64,000 nt of DNA from Clostridia bacterium (GTDB taxonomy: Bacteria; Bacillota; Clostridia; Oscillospirales; Acutalibacteraceae): contig JAFUHX010000020.1 in assembly GCA_017474045.1 (NCBI GenBank), positions 124,001-188,000 on the forward strand, given 5' to 3'. Positions 5,138 through 64,000 of this stretch are shown in pieces. Position numbers and translations under genes: made by a program. Under the pieces are notes generated by a model, which was not told where the DNA came from, made no database searches, and saw nothing but the letters and a program-made list of their open reading frames with translations. How positions within the stretch are numbered: position 1 is the stretch's first letter; each line of letters starts with the position of its first letter.

Positions 5138-6163
5138 ATGGAGCTTGGAAAACGAAAAGAGCTTATTCTCGCTGCAATCGTTGAGCAATATATTAAAACC
5201 GGTGAGCCTATCGGCTCAAAAATGCTGATGGCAACCTTGCCGATTTCTGTTTCTTCGGCAACTATAAGAAACGAAATGAGCGAGCTTGCTGAAATGGGTC
5301 TTCTTGATCAGCCCCATACTTCATCGGGAAGAATTCCTTCTCAGGCTGGCTACAGATATTATATTGATCACCTGATGAATCGCTATGAGCTTTCTGAAGA
5401 TGAAAAAGCCGCAGTTAAGTTTGAGCTTGAAAAAGCTTCGGGCGATCCTGACCGTCTTTTAGAAAAAGCAGGTGAGGTTCTGGCAAGGCTGACAAATTGC
5501 GCCGCTTTGGCAACCAGCCCAACAGATGAATGCGCAACGGTTAAGCGAATTGAAATTGTTCCCGTGGGAACACGGCTTGCGATGATTGTTCTTATGACTT
5601 CAACGGGAATAATCAAAAACGGAATCTGTCGGACCGATGTTGAAATAACAAACGAAATGCTCTCAGATTTCACAAGAATAACAAACGATTGCTTTATCGG
5701 AAAGCCCGTTTGTGATATCGGAACGGTAATGATTCAGACGCTTGTGGCTTCTCTCGGCTGCAATGCTCTTGCAATGAGTCCGATGTTCGTTGTTCTTGCC
5801 GATCTGGCAACAGCGGCAGTCAGCGCAGAGATTCATCTTGAGGGTGAACAAAACCTTCTTCACCACAGAGAGCTTGGCGACAGTATTTTTGAAACGCTTG
5901 CTTTCCTCGATGAAGAAGAAAAGCTTGAAAGAGCCGTTTCCGGAGCAAAAAATGCACTAAGCATAACTATCGGAAAAGAGAATATGTTCCGTCAGCTTGA
6001 AAACACAAGTATGATTGTTGCAAGATATAACATTCAGGGACGAGACGGCGGAGCAATAGGAATAATCGGCCCCACAAGACTTGATTACGCAAGGCTGATT
6101 CCCAGCGTTGAATATTTAACATCTTTAGTTGGGAAACTTTTAACAGATACATTTGAGGAATAA
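5138..6163 (+). CDS. hrcA: Heat-inducible transcription repressor HrcA
   Basis: Repressor of class I heat-shock genes; it binds CIRCE and needs GroEL for activity in characterised relatives. The 341-residue protein has an N-terminal winged helix (LILAAIVEQYIKTGEPIGSK, then SSATIRNEMSELAEMGLLDQPHTSSGR), the most conserved family segment. A GAF-like central region and a C-terminal segment with GAIGIIGPTRLDYARLIP follow. ATG at 5138 has AAGAGGCG at suitable spacing. It is the first gene of hrcA-grpE-dnaK-dnaJ, with grpE starting 11 bases after its stop. Confidence 0.97.
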   Translation: MELGKRKELILAAIVEQYIKTGEPIGSKMLMATLPISVSSATIRNEMSELAEMGLLDQPHTSSGRIPSQAGYRYYIDHLMNRYELSEDEKAAVKFELEKASGDPDRLLEKAGEVLARLTNCAALATSPTDECATVKRIEIVPVGTRLAMIVLMTSTGIIKNGICRTDVEITNEMLSDFTRITNDCFIGKPVCDIGTVMIQTLVASLGCNALAMSPMFVVLADLATAAVSAEIHLEGEQNLLHHRELGDSIFETLAFLDEEEKLERAVSGAKNALSITIGKENMFRQLENTSMIVARYNIQGRDGGAIGIIGPTRLDYARLIPSVEYLTSLVGKLLTDTFEE

Positions 6164-57528: not shown

Positions 57529-57629
57529 AATAAATCATCCTTTCTTTTATGGGTCTTTAAATATCATACATTTATAATTACTAATTTTTCAGATATTTTT
57601 CAACCTCTTTTGCAAGATTTGTTACTTTT

Positions 57630-57658
57630 ATTATACACAAATGTTATGTTGCTGTCAA
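57630..57658 (-). promoter_or_regulatory. Perfect-consensus promoter of the XRE operon
   Basis: On the minus strand TTGACA (57658-57653), 17-base spacer, TATAAT (57635-57630); all twelve consensus positions match. Confidence 0.88.
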
Positions 57659-57877
57659 TAGATAATTTGAAGTAAAATTCAAAGAAAAAAGTGTCGAATA
57701 AAGTCGATTTGAAAAACACTACGAAAAATGTAGAAAAATAATACTATATCTTACTATTTTCGATATAATTTTCATATAGTGGAATTGAGAAAAGTAACAC
57801 CAAAACAAACAAAATTATAGAATTTTAGTAAAAGTGACGAAATTGTTAGATATTACGACACTTTTTGCTAATAATCA

Positions 57878-58020
57878 TTATATGCAATAATGAGCAAATT
57901 CATGTGCAATAGCCAAACTATAACAGTCTCTAACAAAATAATCTATTTTATCAGCGTAAAAAAATCTAATTTTCATATGCAGTATGGAAAGTGTCCAATA
58001 TCATGAAAGAATGCAACCAT
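57878..58020 (-). pseudogene. Two short relics with HExxH-like motifs (possible ImmA/IrrE-type peptidase remnants)
   Basis: On the minus strand two overlapping short frames each end in a zinc-peptidase-like motif. One (57973-58020) reads MVAFFHDIGHFPYCI then stop. The other (57878-57976) reads MKIRFFYADKIDYFVRD, continues CYSLAIAHEFAHYCI and stops. Both resemble the HExxH segment of small ImmA/IrrE (M78) peptidases often encoded near XRE regulators. The 750-base gap between the XRE and sigma genes otherwise shows no gene. The match is short and could be chance. Confidence 0.3.
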
Positions 58021-58135
58021 TCTCAATGTCGGATAAAACCAAACTTTATAATAATATATACGCTTAAGTTGTAAAAATGATAATGAAAATGTATAGGATA
58101 CATTTAGCCTGTTCTTAATTTATGAAAATAAAAAT

Positions 58136-58172
58136 GTTACTTTTTGCATTTTTCGGCACTATATAATAAAGG
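58136..58172 (+). promoter_or_regulatory. Element A: candidate promoter/control element before the ECF-like sigma gene
   Basis: GTTACTTTTTG, then 10-11 bases, then GGCACTATATAATAAAGG. A similar element (GTTACTTTTTG..GAGACTATATAAATAAAGG) lies at 63087-63124. The conserved halves have roughly promoter-like spacing and may be recognised by the sigma factor itself (inference). Confidence 0.4.
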
Positions 58173-58181
58173 TGTATTTTG

Positions 58182-58210
58182 TTGAATATTTGTTTGATTT
58201 GTGCTATCTT
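58182..58210 (+). promoter_or_regulatory. Sigma-A-like promoter before the ECF-like sigma gene
   Basis: TTGAAT (58182-58187), 17-base spacer, TATCTT (58205-58210). It lies 67 bases before the start codon and just downstream of element A. Confidence 0.45.
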
Positions 58211-58276
58211 TATAGCATAAGTGTATTTTTCAAATTTTGCACCTTGCTTTATTATACCAGAAAGTAGATACATAAA

Positions 58277-58816
58277 ATGAATGAAGACAAAAATAAAAAG
58301 TTGGTTGAAAAAATATGGCAAGAATATGAGCCGTACATTCGTAAACTATGTAACTTTAAATTGAAAAGTTTACCGTATTATATAGATGATTGTATTCAGG
58401 ATGTTTTCTTGGATTTGTCGGATGCTTTGAATTCCGGGAAACAAATCGAATATCCAAAAGCTTGGTTAACAAAAGTTGCAAATAATAAGATTAAAGATAT
58501 TTATACTCTAGCAAAAAAAGAAAATGAAAAACTTGTTGCGTTTGAAGCTCAAAATCTTGATGCAACACACTATGGAGTAGTATACGACGAGCCTTTTTCA
58601 GTTGGAGACGAACAAATAGCATTTTTAAAAGATAGAATAATAAATATGCTTGATGAAAAAGACCGGCAATTATTACAGGATAGATACACTAAAGGTAAGA
58701 GCATTGCGCAGATTGCTGAAGAACATAATACGACAGAAAATAATATATATCAAAAACTATTTAGATTAAGAGAAAAAACTAAAATGATAGTAAAAAAGGT
58801 TTTAAATGAAATATGA
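58277..58816 (+). CDS. ECF-like sigma-70 family factor of the island
   Basis: The 179-residue protein has region 2 (YEPYIRKLCNFKLKSLPYYIDDCIQDVFLDLSDAL, here split after KLKSLP) with an acidic DDCIQDVF core, then WLTKVANNKIKDIY. Region 4 has LLQDRYTKGKSIAQIAEEHN and NNIYQKLFRLREKTKMIV. No region 1.1 or 3 is present, consistent with an ECF-type factor. The downstream gene encodes a one-pass membrane protein with an acidic N-terminus, a typical anti-sigma arrangement. No obvious ribosome binding site (AGTAGATACATAAA) precedes the ATG, so translation may be weak. Visibly AT-richer than the core genes. Confidence 0.85.
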   Translation: MNEDKNKKLVEKIWQEYEPYIRKLCNFKLKSLPYYIDDCIQDVFLDLSDALNSGKQIEYPKAWLTKVANNKIKDIYTLAKKENEKLVAFEAQNLDATHYGVVYDEPFSVGDEQIAFLKDRIINMLDEKDRQLLQDRYTKGKSIAQIAEEHNTTENNIYQKLFRLREKTKMIVKKVLNEI

Positions 58817-58888
58817 TTATAAAAAACATAAAAACTTTTGTAAGAAACAAAATTTTTAAGGACTTTATAATTGGAGGTTAGATAAATA

Positions 58889-59686
58889 ATGATTGATGAT
58901 AAAGAGTTTTTAGCCTTCATCAACGACAAGACTCTAGATGGTTCATTAGAAGAAAATCTTAGTAGAATAATTGATGAAGAATTAGAAAAGTCTGAAGAGG
59001 AAATGGACACAGAATTAATTGAGTATTGTTTAGACAAATTAAACGAACTTGAAGTAACGACGCATGATACAGAAGAAAAGAAAGGTAACGGTGATTCCAA
59101 TGATAAACGCGTAAAGATCAAAATTAAAAAGATTATTGCTATCGCTGCCATTATTGCTGTTTTTTTGGTCGGAACATTGTCAGCTTCTGCATTGGTTTTT
59201 GAAGTAAATTTATTTGATGGTATTGTTGAACTTTACAATGACTATATTAGAATTAATTTTGATAAAACCGATGATAATTCTGAAAGTTATGAACTCATTG
59301 ACACAGAGCTTGCAAAGGAACTTGCAAAAAATGGCTTTGATGAGATTCTTTTGCCTGAGGCTCTTTTCAACGGAGAATATGCAATAACAAGTGTTGAATA
59401 TGAGAGAGTAGAATTTATAAGTTCAACTAACATTCAAATTAAATTCAAAGATAAACCAGTAAGTATCTATATTAGTAAATATGATATGGAGGAAATAGTG
59501 CCGGATGTTGAGTTTCTAAATGTAACAAGTGAAATTGAAAAAATTGAAATAGACAACATAACAGTATTTTGCTTTATGCAAAACAAAGAGGCATCTATAA
59601 ATTACAGAGATGGTTTGTCTTTGTACACAATTCAAATTCCACTTGAGTTAAACGATGCTGTAGAATTTGCTAAAACTATTAAATAA
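58889..59686 (+). CDS. One-pass membrane protein, probable anti-sigma factor
   Basis: Residues 1-80 are cytosolic and strongly acidic, with helical EENLSRIIDEELEKSEEE. Residues about 87-110 form a transmembrane helix (IIAIAAIIAVFLVGTLSASALVF), and about 150 residues lie outside, including IDTELAKELAKNGFDEILLP and beta-rich segments resembling DUF4367-type sensor domains. Its position directly after an ECF-like sigma gene supports the anti-sigma role. GGAGG precedes the ATG. Regulated proteolysis by an M50 protease such as RseP would be a possible release step (inference). The next gene follows 15 bases later. Confidence 0.75.
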   Translation: MIDDKEFLAFINDKTLDGSLEENLSRIIDEELEKSEEEMDTELIEYCLDKLNELEVTTHDTEEKKGNGDSNDKRVKIKIKKIIAIAAIIAVFLVGTLSASALVFEVNLFDGIVELYNDYIRINFDKTDDNSESYELIDTELAKELAKNGFDEILLPEALFNGEYAITSVEYERVEFISSTNIQIKFKDKPVSIYISKYDMEEIVPDVEFLNVTSEIEKIEIDNITVFCFMQNKEASINYRDGLSLYTIQIPLELNDAVEFAKTIK

Positions 59687-59701
59687 GGAGTGTTTATTAT
59701 T

Positions 59702-60214
59702 ATGAAGAAAGTTATATCAATGTTTTTAGTTATCTTATCAGTGTTTAGTATGTTTTCTGTTAATGCTTTTGCGAAAGATATATCGTCTGAACAAACACTT
59801 ATTATCAAATCCGGCATAATTGAAGAGGTATATGGTTTGTACAATACAGAAAATGACACTGTTCAGAACACAAGAGCAACCGGATTAATAACAAGTAAGA
59901 GTTTAAAATTATCAAAAACATCAGATAAATTGGTTATAACAGCAAAAACTTCTTGTGCATCAGATGTTGAAAAATGTGGTTTTACTTATATAAAATTACA
60001 AAGATTAATTAACGGTACTTGGACTGATTACACTACCTACTGTTATTATGACCAGTATGCTGAATCAACAACAAAAACATTTTCAAAAAGTATTTCTGCT
60101 CCTACGGGATATACATACCGTGTGATTTGTGAGCATTATGCTGAAAAAACGAAATTGTTAATTTTAAAGGATAAAGAAACAAGTTATAACGAAACATCTT
60201 CATTAGTGTTTTAA
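59702..60214 (+). CDS. Small secreted protein of the sigma module (170 aa)
   Basis: Clear signal peptide: MKKVISMFLVILSVFSMFSVNAFA, cleavage near AFA-KD. The mature protein of about 145 residues has a conserved-looking core RATGLITSKSLKLSKTSD, CGFTYIKLQRLINGTWTDY and GYTYRVICEHYAEK, a beta-rich layout with three cysteines in the mature part. I recall similar small secreted proteins in ruminococci but do not assign a family with certainty. ATG at 59702 is used with AAGGAG 11 bases upstream. It is followed by a terminator and is probably co-transcribed with the sigma and anti-sigma genes. Confidence 0.75.
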   Translation: MKKVISMFLVILSVFSMFSVNAFAKDISSEQTLIIKSGIIEEVYGLYNTENDTVQNTRATGLITSKSLKLSKTSDKLVITAKTSCASDVEKCGFTYIKLQRLINGTWTDYTTYCYYDQYAESTTKTFSKSISAPTGYTYRVICEHYAEKTKLLILKDKETSYNETSSLVF

Positions 60215-60236
60215 ATATTAATAATATCAAAAATAA

Positions 60237-60278
60237 AAGTCTCGTGCTGTTCAAGTTGGAATGGTACGGGACTTTTTT
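60237..60278 (+). terminator. Terminator after the first secreted protein gene
   Basis: AAGTCTCGTGC (60237-60247) pairs with GTACGGGACTT (60264-60274) with G-U pairs, followed by TTTTTT. The 190 bases from here to the next gene hold AT-rich sequence and no further clear gene. Confidence 0.75.
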
Positions 60279-60472
60279 ATATGATATAGCACATTAAATA
60301 ATTTAGCAATAAAAAATTTGGTGATTTTTACTTTGTAAGAATATGATTCTATAAAGACTATATTATTAAACAATATAAAGTCAAATTAAAATGGAGAGGT
60401 GTATGGTGATTCCGATGTGGTAAAAGAAGTAACTATAATAATTTTAAAATTAGATTTAAAAGGAGGATAAAT

Positions 60473-62068
60473 ATGAAACGATTTGTAAGTGTAATAATTT
60501 CTTTTATGATGATTTTTTCAACCGCTATTTTCTCTGTTGGTGCAGAAAATAACGATACGAGGGCAACAAAATCAAAGGCTATCGTAATTATTCCGGGCAT
60601 TGCAGGGTCAAAATTGCAAAATTCGTCATCTCAAGTTGTTTGGTTAAGTACAGCTAACCCTGGACGAATGACACAATTAGAATGTAATGAAAATGGTGCA
60701 AGCGTTAATTCGATCTCAACAATTTCAAATGATACAGATGGTGTTTTAAATACTGGCAAAGAATTATATGATGCATTGGAAAGTGCATATAGTAATTCAT
60801 ATGATATAATTTTCTTTTCATATGATTGGAGAATGAGTTGTTCTGCTGCGGCTTCTTTATTATCTACTAAATTGAGTTCTTATAATGAAGTTATAATAGT
60901 AGCTCACAGTATGGGCGGATTGGTTGCTTCAAAATATTTAGCTACCTCAAATTCGAATAGAAACAAAGTGAGTAAATTTATTTCTATTGGGACTCCATAT
61001 ACTGGATCAGCAAAAGCTTTGCATATGATGGAAACTGGTGAGTTTATTAAAATACCTGTTATTAATATTTCGCCATATAAAAATACAATTAAATCGTTAG
61101 TTTGCAATTTTTCGGCAATATATGAGTTGTTGCCTACAAGCAGATATTTTACAAATAATACCGGATATATAAAAACAGGCACAACTTTACTTTCTAATCA
61201 TACTGATAGTTGGAATTTTATGAAAGCACGAGAGTGGGGTAAAAAATCCAACGGAAGCTCCAAAACAATGTTCAGCAATGCGACATCATTTCATAATTCA
61301 TTATTGGTAAATGGGACTCATGTAGCAAATGGAGGTCTTGTGGATACATATAAAATATATGGTAAAGGTGAGGATACGATTTCAAGGATAATATATGCAT
61401 CAGATGGAACAATAAGCATATCAGTTGTGAATACTGGTGATGGTACCGTGTGTATACAGAGTGCAACAAATACGCTTGGTGCCAATGGAAGTAAAGTATA
61501 TGGATTTAATGCAAAGCATTTAGAACTCATAAAGGACACTGGGGTTATAAATAAAGTTAAATCTATAATAAACGGAACTACTACGGCTTCTTCTTTTTCA
61601 AATGGTACATCCAGTATAAATGTAAATGAAAAAGGTTGGATTATTGGGGAAAATAACAAGCGAACCAATATTATGATATATAACGGAAGCCTTGTAGATA
61701 TTTATAATTCAAAAGATGAAAAGTTGCTTATCGATGGAAACACAGTTTATTACAACGAGGGAGAAAAAAAGATTGAAGTGGGAAGTATCTGGTCATTAGG
61801 TCAAGACTCTTTCCAGTTTGTACTTTATGATGATGAATATATTGTAGATGTAGATAAAATATCAACAAAAAATATCACAGTAAAAATTGAGTATAGTGAT
61901 AGTGGATATTATACAAAATCTGCTACGTTTAACAACATTAACACTTCGTCAAGAATAACGACAACCTCCTCTGACTCAAAAGATATTAAAGTAACAGATA
62001 ATCAGGGCAAAGAATATGTAGCAACAAAAAATTTAACAAAGGCGGAACTTGAATTGCTTAATAATTAA
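60473..62068 (+). CDS. Secreted LCAT-like lipase/acyltransferase of the island
   Basis: Signal peptide: MKRFVSVIISFMMIFSTAIF, cleavage near VGA-EN. The mature protein has IIPGIAGSKLQNSSSQVVWL, typical of lecithin:cholesterol acyltransferase-like enzymes, then FFSYDWRMSC and the nucleophile elbow VAHSMGGLVASKYLA with Ser in AHSMGG. A later catalytic region is likely around GDGTVCIQSA and the His in NAKHLELIKD. The C-terminal about 170 residues form an added beta-rich domain (RTNIMIYNGSLVDIYNSKD, IKVTDNQGKEYVATKNL). It is 531 residues. AAAGGAGG precedes the ATG. Substrate unknown; probably a lipid ester outside the cell. It shares layout with the core-region hydrolase at 13.2 kb. Confidence 0.85.
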   Translation: MKRFVSVIISFMMIFSTAIFSVGAENNDTRATKSKAIVIIPGIAGSKLQNSSSQVVWLSTANPGRMTQLECNENGASVNSISTISNDTDGVLNTGKELYDALESAYSNSYDIIFFSYDWRMSCSAAASLLSTKLSSYNEVIIVAHSMGGLVASKYLATSNSNRNKVSKFISIGTPYTGSAKALHMMETGEFIKIPVINISPYKNTIKSLVCNFSAIYELLPTSRYFTNNTGYIKTGTTLLSNHTDSWNFMKAREWGKKSNGSSKTMFSNATSFHNSLLVNGTHVANGGLVDTYKIYGKGEDTISRIIYASDGTISISVVNTGDGTVCIQSATNTLGANGSKVYGFNAKHLELIKDTGVINKVKSIINGTTTASSFSNGTSSINVNEKGWIIGENNKRTNIMIYNGSLVDIYNSKDEKLLIDGNTVYYNEGEKKIEVGSIWSLGQDSFQFVLYDDEYIVDVDKISTKNITVKIEYSDSGYYTKSATFNNINTSSRITTTSSDSKDIKVTDNQGKEYVATKNLTKAELELLNN

Positions 62069-62089
62069 TTCGATTAAAGGAGAATATCG

Positions 62090-62371
62090 ATGAAAAAGAA
62101 TATTGCATTAAGTTTAATTGATATTTTTTGGGTAATATTTTCAATTCTATTCTTTTTTAGTTTTGCCGAAACTGAATTATTTACATGGTACATATATCTA
62201 ACATATATAACTATAATTGTTATATTTATTTTCAATATAAATGGAGTAATAAATTTAATAAAGAAAAAAACTTCAAACAATAGAATTTTATTTGTAGTAA
62301 CTCATGTTTTAAATATTAGTTTTGTTGTTTTTACATTTTTTTTGATAAGATCAATATTGCAAGCATTTTAA
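62090..62371 (+). CDS. Small three-helix membrane protein (93 aa)
   Basis: Not recognised. Three hydrophobic segments: LSLIDIFWVIFSILFFFSF, WYIYLTYITIIVIFIFNI and VVTHVLNISFVVFTFFLI, separated by short polar loops including LIKKKTSNN. AAAGGAGAA lies before the ATG. It starts 21 bases after the LCAT-like gene, so it is probably co-transcribed with it. It may serve as an immunity- or export-related partner, but nothing in the sequence proves this. Confidence 0.65.
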   Translation: MKKNIALSLIDIFWVIFSILFFFSFAETELFTWYIYLTYITIIVIFIFNINGVINLIKKKTSNNRILFVVTHVLNISFVVFTFFLIRSILQAF

Positions 62372-62391
62372 TATAGAAAAGAGGTATTATA

Positions 62392-62841
62392 ATGATGAAA
62401 AAAACAACTTCATTCTTTTTAGTGTTATTACTTGTTTTTAATTTTTATTCATTTCCAACACTTTATGCTGAAGCTGCGATGATAGGGAACGAAGATACTA
62501 TATTACCAAACTCATATGTACACACAATATATACGGAAATTAATTCATCTTCGTATACAAAAGTTGAAAAATCAGGAAATTATGCAAGGTCAAATAAAAT
62601 AAAGATTGAATATTTGGCCGATACAGATGGTCCTGGGCGTATAGTTAAATTTAAAGTAGTTGAACATTTATTTTTAAATGATGAGGATAACATAACTGTT
62701 TTTAATTTAGAGGAAAACGGTACTCCAAAAACAATTACAATAAGGACAGGCAACAATTTTACTGTTTATGCAAAGTTTAAAGATTCGTCGAGTGGAACAG
62801 GAGAAATTAAGACGCGTGTTTCTTTATATAGAGATGTTTAA
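62392..62841 (+). CDS. Small secreted protein (149 aa)
   Basis: Signal peptide: MMKKTTSFFLVLLLVFNFYSF, cleavage near AEAA-MI. The mature protein is a beta-rich domain of about 120 residues (IYTEINSSSYTKVEKSGNYA, KIKIEYLADTDGPGRIVKFK, ITVFNLEENGTPKTITIRTG), without cysteines. Not recognised. AGAGGT precedes the ATG pair at 62392/62395. Last gene of the cargo block before the strong terminator at 62995. Confidence 0.7.
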   Translation: MMKKTTSFFLVLLLVFNFYSFPTLYAEAAMIGNEDTILPNSYVHTIYTEINSSSYTKVEKSGNYARSNKIKIEYLADTDGPGRIVKFKVVEHLFLNDEDNITVFNLEENGTPKTITIRTGNNFTVYAKFKDSSSGTGEIKTRVSLYRDV

Positions 62842-62994
62842 TGATAGGGATTTGATTTTTTGTTTTTAATTTCGCAATAAAAAAACATTTAATCATAATT
62901 GCCAATATTGTGTGTTTTGTTGAATGATGATTACTATGCATTTGATATCTTTAAATTTTTATTAATCATTGTCTATTGTATTTAAAAAGTAATT

Positions 62995-63037
62995 AAGTGT
63001 AGGCAACAGCAATGTGTGCTGTTGCCTACACTTTTTC
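62995..63037 (+). terminator. Strong terminator at the end of the cargo block
   Basis: AAGTGTAGGCAACAGC (62995-63010) and GCTGTTGCCTACACTT (63018-63033) form a perfect sixteen-base stem with a seven-base loop, followed by TTTT. The 150 bases between the last cargo gene and this hairpin show no gene. Confidence 0.9.
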
Positions 63038-63086
63038 TTGGCAGGGGTGCGTCGTAAAAACTTTTTTTGAAAAATCAAAAAATTGT

Positions 63087-63124
63087 GTTACTTTTTGTCG
63101 TTTTAGAGACTATATAAATAAAGG
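63087..63124 (+). repeat. Second copy of element A, at the right end of the cargo block
   Basis: GTTACTTTTTG..ACTATATAAATAAAGG matches the element upstream of the sigma gene (58136-58172) in its two outer halves, in the same orientation. It points toward the 3' end of the convergent recombinase gene, where no plus-strand gene follows. Confidence 0.4.
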
Positions 63125-63132
63125 GATAATAA

Positions 63133-64000
63133 TTATAGCTTGTTTCTGTAATTATACCTATTCAAAACCTGTTTTTTACGCTTGGTTGTCACCTCGGTGT
63201 AGATTTCTGTAGTTGCCACACTGCTGTGTCCTAAAATTTCCTGCACCGACCTTAAATCAGCTCCGTTTGCTAGCAGGTTAGTCGCAAAGGTGTGTCTTAA
63301 ATAGTGAGGTGTTGATTTCTCATTTATGCCGCAGGCGGTTTTAGCGGAGTTATATATGTACTCAATGCCGTGAATGCTTAATTGCTCACCAAAGCGGTTT
63401 ACAAAGATTTTATCTGTGTTGGTCGGTCTGTTCTTCCGGACTTTTAACCATCGTGTAAGGTTATTCCAGGTTTCATTACAGGATATATAAATAAGCCTTT
63501 GCTTTCGCCCTTTGCCGTGAATGAGAATTGTTCGTTCTGAGTGGATAATATCACCTAAAGAAATGTTTGAAGCCTCGGCTATTCTTATCCCGGTACTTAT
63601 AAGCACATCAATTAAAGCAAGGTTTCGGATGTTCTTCCACTTTTCAAACTCTGTTGTCTCTTTTGCGGCACAGTCAGCAAGATAAGTAAGTAGTTTTGAT
63701 GTCTCTTTCACCGCTAAAGTCTTGGGAAGTCTTCGCTCTTTCTTATAGCGGAAATGGTGATTTTGGTAGTAGTTGACATCAGTATAACCTTGCTCATAAA
63801 GAAAACTGAAAAACATTTTTAGTGTTATCAGCTTTCTGCAAACTGTGTTATCTTTGAGTCCACGCTCTTTGGATAACATCATAACGTATTTCAGGATAAC
63901 CGTTTCGTCAAGCTCATTGCCTTGAAGAAACGCCTGAAAATCATTTAGGTCCGAACGGTAGGCTAATACCGTTTTATCGGATAAATTTTTTGTTGATTGG
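63133..64000 (-). CDS. Tyrosine recombinase/integrase, 5'-partial
   Basis: The frame is open to base 64000, so the N-terminus is cut by the window edge; residues upstream of the ATG at 63882 continue as a typical SAM-like core-binding domain (LAYRSDLNDFQAFLQG). The catalytic domain carries the Arg in LISTGIRIAEASN, a Lys in the LIHGKGRKQR turn, HYLRHTFAT (His-x-x-Arg), GHSSVATTEIYTEV with the second His and the nucleophilic Tyr. It resembles XerC/D-type recombinases of mobile elements. As the last gene before the edge it supports the reading of 55.6-64.0 kb as an integrated element. Whether it acts at the rlmD end cannot be shown here. Confidence 0.93.
   Translation of the reverse strand, partial: QSTKNLSDKTVLAYRSDLNDFQAFLQGNELDETVILKYVMMLSKERGLKDNTVCRKLITLKMFFSFLYEQGYTDVNYYQNHHFRYKKERRLPKTLAVKETSKLLTYLADCAAKETTEFEKWKNIRNLALIDVLISTGIRIAEASNISLGDIIHSERTILIHGKGRKQRLIYISCNETWNNLTRWLKVRKNRPTNTDKIFVNRFGEQLSIHGIEYIYNSAKTACGINEKSTPHYLRHTFATNLLANGADLRSVQEILGHSSVATTEIYTEVTTKRKKQVLNRYNYRNKL

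What the first reader, a model, noticed from the sequence alone, without database searches (positions are those of the whole stretch)
58136..63124. Island cargo: ECF-like sigma, membrane anti-sigma, secreted proteins and an LCAT-like lipase bracketed by a repeated control element
Six consecutive genes form a coherent envelope-signalling module: sigma factor, one-pass membrane anti-sigma-like protein, two small secreted proteins, a secreted LCAT-like acyl hydrolase and a three-helix membrane protein. The block starts after one copy of a GTTACTTTTTG..ACTATATAA element and ends at a very strong terminator followed by a second copy. It lies next to a recombinase, so a signal-controlled lipid-modifying or interbacterial system carried by a mobile element is possible. 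I know of no described system with this layout.
Basis: partly seen in the sequence, partly recalled or inferred. Interest (0 to 1): 0.7.

Follow-up and report, generated by a model that had tools for sequence, protein, structure and literature searches.

The report
Sigma-factor-controlled secreted lipase locus
A bacterium carries a small gene switch (a sigma factor, its membrane-bound inhibitor and an exported protein) that, judging from copies of one promoter, also turns on a secreted lipase; several relatives have the same switch with different exported cargo in that place.

Summary
The six genes, the terminator, both element copies and the recombinase are there. The "repeated control element" reads as an ECF promoter (TGTWAS-N17-ACTWTAT), and the module holds four copies: P1 before sigma, P2 before anti-sigma, P3 before the lipase, P4 beyond the terminator. 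Genome-wide the pattern has 6 matches; the other 2 lie inside coding sequences. A matrix built only from relatives' sigma/anti-sigma gaps gives just these four hits of 12.5 bits or more in 70 kb.

The six genes are not one conserved unit. The core is sigma/anti-sigma/sec1, found together in 18 of 29 non-own loci. Lipase, 3-TM and sec2 genes were found in none of 20 relative loci (five end just after sec1). Some relatives carry other exported cargo behind their own promoter copies.

The element is not the recombinase's site; that is probably a palindrome 5' of the recombinase, which here forms a perfect 33-nt inverted repeat. P4 belongs to the recombinase block and points antisense into it.

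Best reading: an anti-sigma-gated ECF switch with a constant core and exchangeable exported cargo; a new variant of a known kind. Signal, substrate and sec1's role remain unknown.

The parts
58135..58166 (+).
   Evidence: pattern match; 13.0 bits with the relatives' matrix
58277..58816 (+). ECF sigma factor, 179 aa
   Evidence: TIGR02937, Sigma70_r2 and r4_2
58839..58870 (+). P2: ECF-type promoter before anti-sigma
   Evidence: pattern match; 21.7 bits; same place in relatives
58889..59686 (+). one-pass membrane anti-sigma, 265 aa
   Evidence: sub-cutoff DUF4179, one TM, homologues next to sigma in 28 of 29 non-own loci
59702..60214 (+). sec1, exported, conserved third gene of the core
   Evidence: 18 of 29 non-own loci; alignment A4; no Pfam family
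60235..60276 (+). probable terminator after sec1
   Evidence: -23.6 kcal/mol, z -7.2
60334..60365 (+). P3: ECF-type promoter before the lipase
   Evidence: pattern match; 24.9 bits
60473..62068 (+). exported LCAT-like acyl hydrolase, 531 aa
   Evidence: PF02450 59.2 bits, cutoff 21; Ser146/Asp323/His349 invariant in 4 of 4
62090..62371 (+). 93-aa protein with three TM segments
   Evidence: hydropathy; no family
62392..62841 (+). sec2, exported, 149 aa, orphan
   Evidence: signal-like segment; 1 of 300 family genomes, its own
62995..63033 (+). strong terminator
63086..63117 (+).
   Evidence: pattern match; 19.3 bits; shared with G224 as part of the recombinase block
63133..64000 (-). Xer-like recombinase (continues to 64083 outside the window); neighbour, probably not part of the switch
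   Evidence: PF00589; own palindromic site at its 5' end

Best explanation
An accessory ECF sigma/anti-sigma switch with a constant core and exchangeable exported cargo. Inferred working: the membrane anti-sigma holds sigma inactive; an outside signal leads to its proteolysis; freed sigma fires P2 (anti-sigma + sec1: negative feedback plus a conserved exported protein), P3 (exported LCAT-like acyl hydrolase, 3-TM protein, sec2) and probably P1 (its own gene). P4 would send an antisense transcript into the adjacent recombinase. Seen in the sequence: gene identities, promoter copies and positions, terminators, conservation of the core, different cargo in relatives. Inferred: that this sigma uses these promoters, proteolytic activation, enzyme activity, signal.
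For: TGTWAS-N17-ACTWTAT: 6 forward and 0 reverse matches in 2.5 Mb, 4 of them in this 5-kb module, the other 2 inside coding sequences; backwards-read control 2 and 2. Matrix from 12 relatives' sigma/anti-sigma gaps: only 4 hits of 12.5 bits or more in 70 kb, all here; 1000 shuffles of 57601-63200 give on average 0.15 hits of 13 bits or more and 0.003 of 19 or more. Leave-one-out: 11 of 12 training promoters rank first or second in their locus. Promoter-like site in the gap in 15 of 17 relative loci scanned. Six extra copies upstream of downstream ORFs: L078 (2), L079 (1), L080 (2), L081 (1, before a 55-aa ORF near the contig end), all on the sigma strand, 32-280 nt before an ORF. Core triplet in 18 of 29 non-own loci. 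PMC6056542 (passages) notes a T-tract downstream of the AAC triad in the -35 element of ECF promoters, as in P1 and P4. LCAT-like protein above Pfam cutoff with invariant triad; best solved relative group XV phospholipase A2 (E 2.4e-5).
Against: No expression or binding data. The pattern was chosen after seeing the sites, and its control gives 4 matches in all. P1 has only 13.0 bits and, like P4, TGTTAC where P2/P3 have TGTAAG, so it may serve another sigma; the genome has a second sigma/anti-sigma/sec1 triplet with TGTTAC sites. L094's promoter fails leave-one-out. Of 5 relatives with sec1, this promoter class and more than 1.5 kb of sequence after sec1, 2 (L085, L088) have no extra copy. DUF4179 is below cutoff. 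G224 has P4 but no match to this sigma at E 1e-10. 11 of 29 loci lack sec1 in the stretch held. No lipase relative elsewhere has the core beside it (0 of 11 loci, 9 of them with only about 1.5 kb flanks or less), so its membership rests on P3 alone.
Confidence: 0.77

Rival explanations
1. The repeated element is the recombinase's attachment site and the six genes are a mobile cassette between two such sites.
For: Two direct copies bracket the genes; copy 2 lies 16 bp from the recombinase stop codon and is conserved with it in G224.
Against: P2 and P3 share the motif inside the module; relatives have it between sigma and anti-sigma; it is absent 3' of 4 of 6 recombinases printed; a CAATAA-N7-TTATTG palindrome lies 5' of the recombinase in 5 of 6 loci inspected, with one mismatch in the sixth, and forms a perfect 33-nt inverted repeat here.
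Confidence: 0.05
2. Only anti-sigma and sec1 (and sigma) are the regulon; lipase, 3-TM and sec2 are unrelated neighbours and P3 is chance.
For: Lipase relatives elsewhere lie apart from the core (0 of 11 loci; no shared genomes besides the own one); a terminator separates the units.
Against: P3 has the highest matrix score of the 70 kb, 24.9 bits, and relatives have copies in the corresponding place before other cargo.
Confidence: 0.1
3. The switch is an envelope-defence response of RsiV type (sensing a host or rival cell-wall attack) in which the lipase is a repair or modification enzyme rather than an export for foraging or attack.
For: DUF4179-like TM region (sub-cutoff) and an A-x-A at the outer TM end, as in signal-peptidase-cleaved RsiV (PMC6066255, passages).
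Against: No lysozyme-binding domain by Pfam, no RsiV chain among PDB profile hits to E 1; cargo in relatives includes a lectin-metalloprotease and, in a divergent locus, dockerin proteins, which fits exported hydrolases better.
Confidence: 0.2

Closest known systems
SigI/RsgI systems of cellulolytic clostridia (PMC6056542, passages seen)
   Same: Sigma with membrane anti-sigma, own promoter type, control of exported hydrolases, several paralogues per genome; a divergent relative here (L090) carries dockerin proteins.
   Different: ECF sigma rather than SigI; no RsgI domain by Pfam to E 1; promoter has GTWAC/G and ACTATA, not A-tract and CGAA; constant exported third gene sec1.
SigV/RsiV (B. 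subtilis, PMC6066255, passages seen; C. difficile, PMC9044953, search listing only)
   Same: ECF sigma beside a one-pass anti-sigma with a DUF4179-like TM region and a possible signal-peptidase site.
   Different: DUF4179 below cutoff, no lysozyme-binding domain found, exported lipase and sec1 as likely targets.
SigP/RsiP (B. thuringiensis, PMC8844934, passages seen)
   Same: ECF sigma with a membrane anti-sigma cleaved at a signal-peptidase site.
   Different: Controls beta-lactam resistance; its RsiP lacks DUF4179 according to that paper; sequences not compared here.
LCAT / group XV phospholipase A2 family
   Same: PF02450 above cutoff; Ser/Asp/His triad (positions named from recalled family motifs) invariant in 4 of 4; best PDB hit 4x90.
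   Different: Bacterial, exported, with a C-terminal stretch of about 150 aa beyond the aligned hydrolase part; substrate unknown.

Membership tests
ECF sigma-70 factors | Regions 2 and 4 in a short protein | tested here: met
   Sigma70_r4_2 36.7 (cutoff 25.7), Sigma70_r2 24 (cutoff 24), TIGR02937 63.9 (cutoff 42.9); 179 aa
ECF sigma-70 factors | Anti-sigma candidate encoded next door | tested here: met
   28 of 29 non-own anti-sigma loci have the sigma beside it
DUF4179 (RsiV-type) anti-sigma | DUF4179 above Pfam cutoff | tested here: not met
   19.4 bits against 30.1
DUF4179 (RsiV-type) anti-sigma | Cleavage by signal peptidase, then site-2 protease | not testable with these tools
   only a small-x-Ala at the outer TM end is seen, without a control
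LCAT-like lipases (PF02450) | Family model above cutoff and Ser/Asp/His triad | tested here: met
   59.2 bits against 21; triad invariant in 4 of 4
LCAT-like lipases (PF02450) | Acyl hydrolase or transferase activity | not testable with these tools
   needs an assay
SigI/RsgI | RsgI-type domain in the anti-sigma | tested here: not met
   the only Pfam hit to E 1 is sub-cutoff DUF4179
Recombinase attachment site (for the repeated element) | Conserved beside the recombinase across its relatives | tested here: not met
   present 3' of 2 of 6 recombinases printed (G000, G224), absent in G230, G182, G082, G146; a seventh, G076, was not resolved
Known family for sec1 | Match in Pfam, NCBIfam or PDB | tested here: not met
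   none above cutoff: 5 members in Pfam, 1 in NCBIfam; profile against PDB 0 hits to E 1
Anti-phage defence proteins | PADLOC match | tested here: inconclusive
   weak partial matches only: lipase to LmuA (E 3.1e-4, 18.7 bits), anti-sigma to LeoBC (E 0.0055); none for the other four

The most novel reading that the evidence does not exclude
A plug-in expression locus: a constant sigma/anti-sigma/sec1 core, spread through one Clostridia-type family, captures exported weapons or foraging enzymes that each arrive with a copy of the sigma's own promoter; sec1 is the shared exported signal or adaptor of the system, and P4 lets the sigma silence, by antisense, the recombinase of the neighbouring invertible segment.
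Probability: 0.22. Interest if true: 0.68.

Novelty: new variant of a known kind. Interest (0 to 1): 0.45.

Why it matters
It gives a promoter motif that predicts the regulon of an uncharacterised ECF sigma class in this bacterial family, singles out an exported protein family (sec1) for which no database family was found, and offers a way to find co-regulated exported enzymes and peptide clusters from their promoter copies alone. If the constant-core, variable-cargo design holds, it is a regulatory socket for accessory exported functions.

Tried and rejected
Element as attachment site: rejected. Sec1 and sec2 as paralogues: the phmmer matches (E 0.002 in the window, E 0.0044 between sec2 and L081's sec1) come down to the signal peptide in a profile comparison (26 columns, probability 21%), so rejected. 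Sec1 as DUF6147: recalled only; no Pfam hit and no paper with the term, dropped. Sigma in viral contigs and plasmids: no match. Sec1 in phages, plasmids and viral contigs: no match. Sec1 at class level: 5 of 391 genomes at E 1e-6, the own one and one more of the family included, the other three with E 5.6e-11 to 4e-8; one of those three (G348, L168) has sigma and anti-sigma matches beside it, but with sec1 on the other strand. Lipase relatives with the promoter: 1 of 11 loci has a matrix hit (L011, 20.7 bits), which does not lie before the lipase (lipase position). The two further whole-genome pattern matches lie inside coding sequences. Literature: 'DUF4179'+'anti-sigma' 2 papers, 'DUF6147' 0, 'ECF sigma'+'anti-sigma'+'Ruminococcus'+'secreted' 0, and four broader searches with 31, 51, 82 and 5 papers, of which 15, 12, 12 and 5 were listed. 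No listed title or abstract start describes this layout; these are open-licence full texts only and unlisted papers were not seen. Structure prediction of sec1 and the anti-sigma could not be run.
Full report
What is there. The six genes are as described, on the + strand, with a hairpin terminator after sec2 (62995-63033) and a probable one after sec1 (60235-60276). Gene 1 is an ECF sigma factor. Gene 2 is a one-pass membrane protein whose homologues stand beside the sigma gene in 28 of 29 non-own loci. Gene 3 (sec1) is exported by its signal-like N-terminus and belongs to no Pfam family. Gene 4 is an exported LCAT-like hydrolase; Ser146, Asp323 and His349, named as triad from recalled family motifs, are invariant in the four sequences aligned; the best solved relative is group XV phospholipase A2, E 2.4e-5. 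Gene 5 is a 93-aa protein with three TM segments and gene 6 an exported 149-aa protein; neither has a Pfam family.

The control element. PMC6056542 (passages) mentions a T-tract downstream of the AAC triad in ECF -35 elements. With TGTWAS-N17-ACTWTAT the own genome has 6 forward matches and none reverse: window 58135 (P1), 58839 (P2), 60334 (P3), 63086 (P4) and two inside coding sequences elsewhere; the backwards-read control gives 2 and 2. I chose that pattern after seeing the sites, so the fairer test is a matrix made only from 12 relatives' sigma/anti-sigma gaps. It finds four sites of 12.5 bits or more in the window plus the rest of its contig (70 kb): P3 24.9, P2 21.7, P4 19.3, P1 13.0; 1000 dinucleotide shuffles of 57601-63200 give on average 0.15 sites of 13 bits or more, at most 2. 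The training sites were picked by a pattern too; leaving each locus out with its near-duplicate, 11 of 12 rank first or second in their locus, the second places (L079, L081) being behind an extra cargo copy; L094 fails.

Relatives. In 300 family genomes, own included, the anti-sigma has a match in 30 (E 0.001) and the sigma in 31 (E 1e-10). I fetched 20 sigma loci. The gap between sigma and anti-sigma holds a promoter-like site in 15 of 17 loci scanned; L090, L091 and L095 were not scanned. Of the two misses, L088 has a 22.1-bit matrix hit there and L093 a site of a variant type. Sec1 stands next to the anti-sigma in 18 of the 29 non-own best loci, one cut by the contig end and one broken in two; further, weaker matches in the same genomes were not examined. 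Aligned sec1 proteins are 30-72% identical to the window's. None of the 20 loci shows the lipase, the 3-TM protein or sec2 at E 0.01, apart from one signal-peptide-level match of sec2 to L081's sec1; five of the loci (L077, L081, L082, L083, L091) end within about 650 bp after sec1 and say little. Instead, further promoter copies stand before other ORFs: in L078 a radical-SAM/PqqD cluster and a ricin-lectin protein with HExxH; in L079 a ricin-lectin protein with HExxH and a Peptidase_M10 match above cutoff; in L080 two exported proteins without a family above cutoff; L081 ends soon after its extra copy. L085 and L088 have sec1 but no extra copy; L084, L086 and L087 have neither. L093, a divergent relative, has a copy of its own variant before a divergent exported-protein gene. 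In L090 sec1-like domains are part of longer exported proteins, one with a dockerin domain above cutoff, beside a papain-dockerin protein.

The lipase elsewhere. It has a match in 10 of 300 family genomes, own included; the 9 others are none of the 29 non-own genomes with an anti-sigma match. In 11 lipase-relative loci, two with 10-kb flanks and the rest with about 1.5 kb or less, no sigma, anti-sigma or sec1 relative was found at E 0.001. Sec2 has no match in 299 other family genomes at E 0.001. The 3-TM protein was not searched in whole genomes. So this lipase unit is an addition to the core, tied to it by P3.

Is it mobile? The module is AT-rich: G+C 0.291; of 118 windows of 4.9 kb, 2 are as low, the recombinase part in the window has 0.393 and the first 56 kb 0.401. 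None of 8 same-genus loci shows a module gene after rlmD, with 2.2, 2.7 and 4.8 kb of sequence in the three shortest. Sigma and anti-sigma are 69-71% identical to those of another genus (g18) but 47% and 38% to the best same-genus pair, which suggests transfer or paralogy. None of this shows movement by the adjacent recombinase.

The recombinase. It is Xer-like and 96% identical to one in a same-genus species, G224, where rlmD is 61% identical. The shared DNA runs from 63056 to 64146 at 90.3% and includes P4, which differs there at one spacer position. G224 has no match to this sigma at E 1e-10 and a different left neighbour. So P4 belongs to the recombinase block; G230's 88%-identical recombinase lacks it. 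By eye, CAATAA-N7-TTATTG lies 5' of the recombinase gene in 5 of 6 loci printed, with one mismatch in the sixth (G224, at the contig end); the seventh, G076, was not printed. In this genome two copies form a perfect 33-nt inverted repeat at 64127-64159 and 67721-67753 in continued window numbering, the only two matches of its 23-nt core within 3 mismatches. This looks like an invertible segment, and the recombinase most likely acts there.

Mechanism. Seen: parts, promoter copies, order, conservation. Inferred from ECF biology: the anti-sigma holds sigma, a signal causes its proteolysis (RsiV and RsiP are cleaved by signal peptidase: PMC6066255 and PMC8844934, passages), sigma then fires P2, P3 and perhaps P1. 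The window's anti-sigma and 17 of 20 aligned relatives have a small residue-x-Ala at the outer TM end (my count's output, no control), which fits but proves nothing. Signal, lipase substrate and the role of sec1 are unknown. P4 may give antisense RNA against the recombinase or be a relic.

Verdict. As a kind it is an ECF/anti-sigma switch for exported proteins; the constant exported third gene and the exchangeable cargo with promoter copies make it a new variant. The literature searches listed under Tried and rejected showed no description of this layout, within their limits.

Noticed in passing
64127-64159 and 67721-67753 in continued window numbering (L004:2127-2159, 5721-5753): Perfect 33-nt inverted repeat 3.6 kb apart beside the Xer-like recombinase, enclosing a BtpA-family gene and two unknown genes: probable invertible segment.
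   Followed up: partly
L004:5914-6816: TIR-like protein matching the PADLOC model spbK (238 bits), a defence gene, just beyond the inverted repeat.
   Followed up: no
L163:2536-4472 (same genome, contig 56): Second sigma/anti-sigma/sec1 triplet, with its own TGTTAC-type sites at 2160 and 3066.
   Followed up: partly
L156:8632-19126 (G224): Left of the same recombinase block, a different ECF sigma/DUF4367 pair and a 2610-aa protein with signal-like start and weak sub-cutoff RHS and Ig-like matches.
   Followed up: no
L077, L081, L082, L083: Four close relatives' contigs end inside sec1 or within about 400 bp after it, which hints at repeats or strain variation there.
   Followed up: no
L090:4388-8336: Sec1-like domains within longer exported proteins, one with a dockerin domain, and a papain-dockerin protein behind a sigma/anti-sigma pair.
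   Followed up: partly
L092, sites 4466 and 4668 in the sigma-forward orientation used: Two near-identical promoter-like copies between sigma and anti-sigma, with what looks like a cut-off duplicate start of the anti-sigma gene between them.
   Followed up: no
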